Shown one piece after another: positions 61,241-64,000 of a stretch of 64,000 nucleotides of DNA (within the stretch, counting starts at the first letter, position 1; every line of letters starts with the position of its first letter). The notes below the pieces were generated by a model that searched no databases, had not been told where the DNA came from, and saw nothing but the letters and a program-made list of their open reading frames with translations. The position numbers and the translations under genes are program-made. This DNA is from Cavenderia fasciculata (Eukaryota > Evosea > Eumycetozoa > Acytosteliales > Cavenderiaceae): the NCBI RefSeq assembly GCF_000203815.1, contig NW_004457624.1, positions 3,248,354-3,312,353 of the forward strand. Direction: 5' to 3'.

Positions 61241-61284
<44 letters not shown>

Positions 61285-62384: not shown

Positions 62385-64000
62385 ATGGATACGATATTAA
62401 ATAATGTATTTAATAATGTAAAAGATGAGAGAATATTGATGGAATATTTACAATACATTCAAAGTAATCATAGTCATTTGGAACAATCGTTTCAGTTGGA
62501 ATTAGAGAATGCAAATTGGGAGATTGTTACAAGACTGTTGTACGTTATTCTGACTGAACACTTTTTTGAATGTGAACCATACCAACTCGTTCAAGGTCTA
62601 AATGTCATCAAATTTAAACCAAACCAAGATGCCACTTTAGATTCATCTTCATTGTCGGTACAACTCCAATTTTATATCGAGGATCTTTATTGTTTGGACC
62701 GATTTACATTGGACAAGACAAAAAAGTTGACATTAGTGGAGTATGGACCAACCAAAGAATCGTCATGTGTCATCATCCACAATTACTCGGGGTTGGTATC
62801 AGTAGTGGAGAAATACTTTGGTAAAACAACAACTGGTTACGAACAATTTGAAAAGGACTTGGATAATTGTTGGGTCAATATGGCTTTGTCAAAGGTACTG
62901 TCAAATGAAAGAATGGAGTTACTAAAAGAAGAGATTACCAAGATGAATTGCAAGTCGGTACCAGAGTATATTGAGAGTATGTTGAAACAAGACCCATCAT
63001 ACAGTCATGTGTTTTACGAACAATTTCATCGTCGTGGTCATCCAACTCACCCCTTTGTAAAGAGTAAGGTTGGATTGTCGGTTGATCAAGTCACCAACTA
63101 TTCACCAGAGTTTGGAGGTACAATCGATCCAAGACTCATCGCAATCCATCGATCAAAAGGAGGATTCAAATCATATGACGATCAACAAGAACCATGTCCA
63201 AACCAATTTATCTTTGGTTTGTTCCCTTGTATAGAGGAAAAGGTTAGAGACTATTTTAAAATGATTGGGTTGGAATTACAAGATTATTATTTAAATTTAA
63301 TACATCCACATCAACTATCTCAACCAGTCATCTCTCAATTCAATCAAGATATTGAAAACAATGAATTGATTATTATTCCATCGTCGATGTCATCGGACAT
63401 TTCCTCTAGACCATTGGTATCGGTTAGATCATTAGCATTGCAATACAAGCAATCTGATCAATATAATCAAACACTACCATCCATCAAATGTTCGTTTAGC
63501 GTTTTATTGACCACCGTAGTACGAACTTTAAATCACTCAACGTGTATCACGAGTCCACAGTTTTCAAGAATATTGGATGATATTTTCAAGAGAGAAAGAG
63601 GTAATGGATTTGGAACAAAAATACATTTTGTAAAGGATCTAATGGGAATATATTACTACCATGACGATCAAACAGGTGCAGGTGGAGGTGGAGGAAAACA
63701 TCAACACAAGAATGCTGAATTGTCATCATTGTGGAGACAAAATTTACATTGTTTTGTAACTGACCCAACAACTGAACAGATAGTATCTGTACCTGCCCTA
63801 TTCAACACCTCACCAATATCAGGAACCAAACTACTCTTTGAATTTATCGATCAATTAAAAACCAACCAACATATCACAACCACATCCAAAGCTATTCGTC
63901 TTTGGATGAAACATTACTTTCAACTACTTTTACCATTCTATATTATAATGTCTACAAAATATGGAGTGGCAATTGAAGCACACCACCAAAACACCTATGT
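62385..64000 (+). CDS. IucA/IucC-family NIS siderophore synthetase, 3' end outside the window
   Basis: An uninterrupted reading frame of 538 codons starts at ATG 62385 (MDTILNNVFNNVKDERILME) and is still open at the right edge. The family adenylates a carboxylate such as citrate and condenses it with an amine or alcohol to build hydroxamate or carboxylate siderophores. Family motifs are in order: RRGHPTHPFVKSKVGLS at 216-232 (ATP/citrate-binding HP..HP..K pattern), TNYSPEFGG shortly after, SVRSLALQ from 346, KCSFSVLLTTVVRTLN at 368-383 and IRLWMKHYFQLLLPF followed by GVAIEAHHQN at 528-536. Bacterial members are about 580-620 residues, so roughly 50-100 are missing. A Gly-rich insert (GAGGGGG) is the only low-complexity part. 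There is no intron and no signal peptide, so a cytosolic enzyme is likely. Confidence 0.9.
   Translation, partial: MDTILNNVFNNVKDERILMEYLQYIQSNHSHLEQSFQLELENANWEIVTRLLYVILTEHFFECEPYQLVQGLNVIKFKPNQDATLDSSSLSVQLQFYIEDLYCLDRFTLDKTKKLTLVEYGPTKESSCVIIHNYSGLVSVVEKYFGKTTTGYEQFEKDLDNCWVNMALSKVLSNERMELLKEEITKMNCKSVPEYIESMLKQDPSYSHVFYEQFHRRGHPTHPFVKSKVGLSVDQVTNYSPEFGGTIDPRLIAIHRSKGGFKSYDDQQEPCPNQFIFGLFPCIEEKVRDYFKMIGLELQDYYLNLIHPHQLSQPVISQFNQDIENNELIIIPSSMSSDISSRPLVSVRSLALQYKQSDQYNQTLPSIKCSFSVLLTTVVRTLNHSTCITSPQFSRILDDIFKRERGNGFGTKIHFVKDLMGIYYYHDDQTGAGGGGGKHQHKNAELSSLWRQNLHCFVTDPTTEQIVSVPALFNTSPISGTKLLFEFIDQLKTNQHITTTSKAIRLWMKHYFQLLLPFYIIMSTKYGVAIEAHHQNTY

What the first reader, a model, noticed from the sequence alone, without database searches (positions are those of the whole stretch)
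62385..64000. Bacterial-type NIS siderophore synthetase gene in a social amoeba
The frame carries the full ordered set of IucA/IucC motifs (GHPTHPFVK, SVRSLAL, the Arg-bearing KCSFSVLLTTVVRTLN, EAHHQN) and is intronless, while most neighbours have introns. The family is characteristically bacterial, with few known eukaryotic cases such as the rhizoferrin synthetase of Mucoromycota. Flanking MINDY and A/T-rich spacer are plainly dictyostelid, and the gene uses the host's A/T-rich codons, so contamination is unlikely and an old transfer is favoured. It implies that the amoeba makes a citrate-type siderophore or uses the chemistry for another conjugate, a pathway I am not aware of in dictyostelids.
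Basis: partly seen in the sequence, partly recalled or inferred. Interest (0 to 1): 0.9.

Follow-up and report, generated by a model that had tools for sequence, protein, structure and literature searches.

The report
Amoeba siderophore-synthetase gene, already listed
A social amoeba carries a real, bacterial-type gene for an enzyme that joins citrate to amines, as in iron-scavenging molecules; the family was already on the list of genes that dictyostelids may have taken from bacteria, but here it forms a small cluster of three intact copies whose product is still unknown.

Summary
Window 62385-64000 is the first 538 codons of a single-exon, 690-aa NIS synthetase (IucA_IucC 4e-49, FhuF-like 1e-12) that ends 457 nt past the window. 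The genome holds three such genes within 11.9 kb: NIS1 (window), NIS2 (35% identical to NIS1) and NIS3 (85%). All three frames are intact, with host-like codon use, on a 3.4-Mb contig of eukaryotic genes, so contamination is unlikely. NIS1-NIS3 dN/dS is about 0.32. Of 24 near-invariant positions NIS1 and NIS3 keep 22; NIS2 keeps 20 and has Ser for the first His of GHPxHP. The three form one clade (100/100), only 22-28% identical to the best bacterial relatives. They fall on the rhizoferrin/staphyloferrin A (type A') side, but other placements are not rejected (AU p 0.20, 0.25), and no donor is identifiable. Best reading: ATP-dependent citrate-diamine condensation giving a rhizoferrin-like product; an ornithine decarboxylase is present to supply putrescine. 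The product is untested. This is not new to dictyostelids: a 2011 paper lists IucA_IucC in D. discoideum (DDB_G0294004, function unknown) with a related sequence in D. purpureum. The three-gene cluster, the divergent paralogue and the type A' lead are what I add.

The parts
62385..64000 (+). NIS1: first 538 codons of a single-exon 690-codon IucA/IucC-family (NIS) synthetase gene; the frame runs 457 nt past the window's end (C21:3310738-3312810)
63006..63806 (+). IucA_IucC domain (PF04183), residues 208-474
   Evidence: 4.4e-49
63036..63053 (+). GHPTHP motif, residues 218-223; the first His is kept in 92 of 94 bacterial proteins and in NIS1 and NIS3, but is Ser in NIS2
63420..63428 (+). S346-x-R348, kept in 94 of 94 and 93 of 94 bacterial proteins
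63486..63524 (+). K368, T376 and R380 (the Arg-bearing motif); T-x-x-x-R spacing fits AcsD T301/R305 (R305 seen in PMC3323832, T301 recalled)
63975..63992 (+). EAHHQN, residues 531-536, with H533 and N536; H533 is the likely counterpart of AcsD H444
63900..64000 (+). start of the FhuF-like C-terminal domain (PF06276), residues 506-626; most of it lies past the window
   Evidence: 1.4e-12

Best explanation
NIS1 is a working NIS synthetase of the amoeba. Shown: family, domain order, catalytic residues, three paralogues, integration in the host genome, purifying selection between NIS1 and NIS3. Inferred: it adenylates a carboxylate of citrate with ATP and passes the citryl group to an amine, most likely a diamine such as putrescine made by the host's own ornithine decarboxylase, giving a rhizoferrin-like dicitryl-diamine that binds Fe(III). 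One enzyme can do both condensations, as in Rhizopus delemar and Ralstonia pickettii. NIS2, far diverged and without the near-invariant first His of GHPxHP, probably has another substrate or a lesser activity. The gene most likely came into the dictyostelid line from bacteria long ago and was then duplicated in place.
For: Pfam and NCBIfam matches, FslA (rhizoferrin) best for 3 of 3 amoeba proteins; FslA was also best for 6 of 6 bacterial proteins of the type A' side and SbnF for 4 of 4 of other types. Of 24 positions kept in at least 95% of 94 bacterial proteins, NIS1 and NIS3 keep 22 and NIS2 20. Trees of 49 and 37 rows put the amoeba clade (100/100) on the type A' side (90/80 and 86/81), nearest staphylococcal SfaD-like proteins (85/50 and 92/88). 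NIS1-NIS3 dN 0.087, dS 0.273 by NG86. Ornithine decarboxylase in the genome, PDB match 1.6e-76. Codon-use correlation with window ORFs 0.88-0.90, against 0.76, 0.60, 0.56 and 0.14 for four bacterial NIS genes. One-enzyme rhizoferrin synthesis in R. pickettii and R. delemar: abstract and passages of PMC7857480.
Against: All NCBIfam scores are far under the curated cut-offs, though those of the bacterial proteins are too. AU tests do not reject grouping the amoeba with type A (p 0.195) or type C (p 0.247). Of 12 positions typical of the type A' set the amoeba proteins keep 4. No exporter or decarboxylase gene adjoins the cluster among the neighbours examined. The best PDB match by sequence is AsbB, not a type A' enzyme. 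No expression or product data. The YN00 check of dN/dS gave no value.
Confidence: 0.55

Rival explanations
1. The enzymes condense citrate (or another acid) with a different nucleophile to make something that is not a secreted siderophore: an intracellular iron ligand or a developmental or defence metabolite.
For: Only 4 of 12 type A' positions kept; long stem (1.95 and 1.84 changes per column); NIS2 has lost a near-invariant His; no siderophore-specific partner found: Lys/Orn N-hydroxylase family gave one weak match, 1.1e-4, and its fragment's only NCBIfam match was a weak ArsO one.
Against: Catalytic core kept; FslA the best family; a rhizoferrin-type product needs no hydroxylase.
Confidence: 0.3
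2. Stepwise synthesis from ornithine: one NIS makes N-citrylornithine, a decarboxylase makes N-citrylputrescine, a second NIS adds the other citrate, as in Francisella (or, with D-ornithine and no decarboxylation, staphyloferrin A).
For: Two unlike paralogues exist; nearest bacterial rows are SfaD-like; two diaminopimelate-decarboxylase-like genes are in the genome, one with a weak FslC match, 5.5e-16.
Against: Those decarboxylases match LysA far better (198 and 206 bits against 58 and no FslC match); a DapF gene offers them another role; they are on other contigs; the host has ODC, so putrescine should be available.
Confidence: 0.1
3. Bacterial contamination or a chimeric contig.
For: The family is mostly bacterial; the genes have no introns.
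Against: Three copies on a 3.4-Mb contig with MINDY, a ComC_SSD-domain gene between NIS1 and NIS2, GH28 and CNNM; GC 0.33-0.35 against 0.346 for the window and host-like codon use; no bacterial relative found above 28% identity.
Confidence: 0.02

Closest known systems
Dictyostelium discoideum DDB_G0294004 (IucA_IucC, candidate bacterial transfer)
   Same: same Pfam domain, same group of organisms, function unknown (PMC3188802 Table 2, section read)
   Different: one gene is listed there; here three in a cluster.
Rhizoferrin synthetase of Ralstonia pickettii (and Rfs of Rhizopus delemar)
   Same: IucA_IucC plus FhuF-like order; FslA as best NCBIfam family; R. pickettii row on the same side of the tree
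   Different: the bacterial gene sits beside an MFS exporter (passage of PMC7857480), which the amoeba cluster lacks; identity about 23-27%. Fungal Rfs sequence not available here.
Staphyloferrin A synthetase SfaD (label by gene order, recalled)
   Same: nearest bacterial rows in both trees
   Different: support weak to moderate (85/50, 92/88); about 25-27% identity

Membership tests
IucA/IucC (NIS synthetase) family | PF04183 domain over the curated cut-off | tested here: met
   168-177 bits against a cut-off of 25, 3 of 3 proteins
IucA/IucC (NIS synthetase) family | C-terminal FhuF-like domain | tested here: met
   40-49 bits against 25.2, 3 of 3 proteins; partial (profile 2-51 of 161) in NIS2
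IucA/IucC (NIS synthetase) family | conserved active-site residues (S-x-R, K, T-x-x-x-R, H-x-x-N, D) | tested here: met
   all kept in 3 of 3 proteins; NIS2 lacks the first His of GHPxHP. That these are the active-site set is partly recalled; R305 and H444 of AcsD seen in passages.
Type A' NIS synthetases (rhizoferrin, staphyloferrin A) | clusters with known type A' proteins | tested here: inconclusive
   on that side at 90/80 and 86/81; groupings with type A or C not rejected; 4 of 12 type-typical positions kept
Rhizoferrin synthetase | makes dicitryl-putrescine from citrate, ATP and putrescine | not testable with these tools
   needs enzyme assay or mass spectrometry
Rhizoferrin synthetase (NCBIfam FslA, NF041038) | score over the curated cut-off of 1000 bits | tested here: not met
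   100-120 bits; bacterial type A' proteins 187-464 bits, not met either
Ortholog of D. discoideum DDB_G0294004 | reciprocal best match or synteny | not testable with these tools
   no other dictyostelid genome or protein set is held
Horizontally transferred bacterial gene | nested within a bacterial clade with support | tested here: inconclusive
   long stem among bacterial rows; no donor, no fungal rows available

The most novel reading that the evidence does not exclude
Dictyostelids make and secrete a citrate-diamine siderophore with a family of in-place duplicated, specialised synthetases, which would be an amoebozoan siderophore and perhaps a shared good or a means of withholding iron from bacteria in the multicellular stage.
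Probability: 0.3. Interest if true: 0.75.

Novelty: new member of a known kind. Interest (0 to 1): 0.42.

Why it matters
If the product is a siderophore, a phagotrophic amoeba that lives on bacteria would carry out iron chemistry of bacterial type, and dictyostelids offer the genetics to test it by knock-out. The presence of the gene alone has been on record since at least 2011, so the value lies in the unanswered function and in the three-copy cluster with one strongly altered paralogue.

Tried and rejected
Plasmids: 121 records for NIS1, none with a place covering 80% of the query; 37 records for NIS2.

Donor hunt: Legionella was considered because it lives in amoebae. 58 of 143 genomes of its order have the family, but Legionella rows form their own clade, not sister to the amoeba. 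Rejected for lack of evidence, not excluded.

Partner genes: ornithine decarboxylase found. Two LysA-like decarboxylases were considered as N-citrylornithine decarboxylases and set aside. TRI12-type MFS: 2 matches, 1 over the cut-off, but the family rings in 11 of 14 prokaryote controls and so says little.

Rows left out: of 80 bacterial loci, 31 representatives were kept at 65% identity, then L021 was exchanged for L027, L073 (short contig) dropped and L074 added, giving 49 rows with 15 reference proteins and 3 amoeba proteins. One search used 37 of those 49. One search used 79 of the 80 loci plus 15 references; its 'type A'' set of 83 counts all 79 hits as type A', an assumption. Names SfaB, SfaD, SbnC, SbnE, SbnF rest on gene order and types A/B/C of references on recall; RhbC, RhbF, AcbA, AcbC and IucC are as annotated.

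Structure prediction was asked for once with the window's own part of NIS1 and 26 bacterial relatives, and was switched off; no fold evidence is claimed.

Full report
WHAT IS THERE. The frame starting at 62385 is open to the end of the window (538 aa). The window is G000:C21:3248354-3312353 of a 31.0-Mb genome in 21 contigs. Fetching the flank shows a 690-aa single-exon gene, C21:3310738-3312810, identical to the window over the shared 1616 bases. Pfam gives IucA_IucC and FhuF.

NOT ONE GENE BUT THREE. The family search over the genome finds three matches, all on C21: NIS1 (window), NIS2 at 3317331-3319466 on the minus strand (711 aa) and NIS3 at 3320531-3322621 on the plus strand (696 aa). 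They span 11,884 bases and end 86 kb before the contig's end. NIS3 is 85% and NIS2 35% identical to NIS1. DNA similarity between the NIS1 and NIS3 regions is confined to the gene apart from the 101-base overlap of the two fetched pieces and a short match to NIS2. NG86 gives dN 0.087 and dS 0.273 for NIS1-NIS3 (ratio 0.32); YN00 returned no value. Values against NIS2 are saturated.

HOST GENE OR CONTAMINANT. The organism is a dictyostelid by content: 27 matches to Dicty_spore_N, a family absent from 14 of 14 control genomes, which are prokaryotes. Left of NIS1 is a MINDY gene whose last exon matches only profile positions 224-264, as expected of a split gene; between NIS1 and NIS2 is a gene with the ComC supersandwich domain; right of NIS3 are GH28 and CNNM genes. 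GC is 0.353, 0.352 and 0.325 against 0.346 for the window. Codon fractions correlate 0.88-0.90 with 17 mechanical ORFs of the window, against 0.76 (Staphylococcus), 0.60 (Legionella), 0.56 (Methylophaga) and 0.14 (Herbaspirillum) for four bacterial NIS genes. The ORFs are not gene models; four with GC3 over 0.5 may be spurious, and without them the values are 0.92-0.93. The species was not identified.

IS IT A WORKING ENZYME. I aligned the three proteins with 94 prokaryotic relatives. Of 24 columns kept in at least 95% of these, NIS1 and NIS3 match 22 (P to L at 305, T to S at 349 in NIS1 numbering) and NIS2 matches 20 (also H to S and P to I in the GHPxHP motif). S346, R348, K368, T376, R380, H533, N536 and D553 are kept in all three. 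Their spacing fits the AcsD residues I recall (S279, R281, T301, R305, H444, N447, D464); R305 and H444 were seen as mutated, R305 as crucial for adenylate formation, in passages of PMC3323832 (part 1 of 4 and passages seen).

WHICH TYPE. NCBIfam FslA is the best family for 3 of 3 amoeba proteins, 100-120 bits, far under its cut-off of 1000. On ten bacterial proteins FslA is best for the six on the type A' side and SbnF for the four of other types. Two maximum-likelihood trees, 49 and 37 rows, give an amoeba clade at 100/100 on a long stem, on the type A' side (90/80; 86/81), with staphylococcal SfaD-like rows nearest (85/50; 92/88). Against this: AU tests do not reject a union with type A (p 0.195) or type C (p 0.247) references; the amoeba keeps 4 of 12 type-typical positions; letter make-up differs; the bacterial sample was fetched by similarity to the amoeba proteins. 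So type A' is a lead, not a finding. No donor can be named: best bacterial segments are 22-28% identical.

HOW IT MAY WORK. NIS enzymes adenylate citrate and pass the citryl group to an amine or alcohol (abstract and part 1 of PMC3323832). One enzyme suffices for rhizoferrin from citrate and putrescine in R. pickettii and R. delemar (abstract and passages of PMC7857480). The amoeba genome has a canonical ornithine decarboxylase (PDB match 1.6e-76), so putrescine should be at hand. No N-hydroxylase of note was found (one weak match), nor would a rhizoferrin-type product need one. Two further decarboxylases of the diaminopimelate kind exist on other contigs and are better explained by lysine metabolism. 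Whether the product is secreted, and what for, is inference.

WHAT IS KNOWN. PMC3188802 (section 10 read): 18 D. discoideum genes were proposed as bacterial transfers in the first genome paper, 16 remain, among them IucA_IucC, 'siderophore synthesis', DDB_G0294004, function in D. discoideum 'unknown'; in D. purpureum a related sequence without a gene model. The first genome paper itself is not held. A search for the gene's identifier found that paper only; searches for Dictyostelium with IucA, with siderophore and transfer, and for siderophores in social amoebae showed no functional study in their listings; the library holds open-licence papers only. Fungal NIS synthetases are described as conserved in early-diverging fungi (passages of PMC8070225) and as type A' in Armillaria (passages of PMC10700112, where Dictyostelium and amoebae are not mentioned).

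VERDICT. A correct and well-read observation, a new member of a known kind. The claim of novelty in dictyostelids falls; the three-gene cluster and its divergent member stand as additions, with the function open.

Noticed in passing
G000:C21:1305497-1305886 (L121); G000:C2:1736059-1737635 (L117:1060-2636); G000:C3:2387434-2388444 (L119:1435-2445): A truncated diaminopimelate route: DapF over the curated cut-off (115.7 against 114.65 bits) and two LysA-like decarboxylases (under the cut-off, exon fragments), but no DapA, no DapB_C and only a weak DapB_N match (1.3e-4). It could let a bacteria-eating amoeba turn peptidoglycan diaminopimelate into lysine.
   Followed up: partly
G000:C21:3310738-3322621: The NIS cluster ends 86 kb before the end of its 3.4-Mb contig, possibly near a chromosome end.
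   Followed up: no
L004:7040-7837 (-), G000:C21:3313039-3313839: A gene with the ComC supersandwich domain lies between NIS1 and NIS2.
   Followed up: no
window 61244-61284: A run of about 14 ACT triplets lies near the MINDY gene (seen).
   Followed up: no
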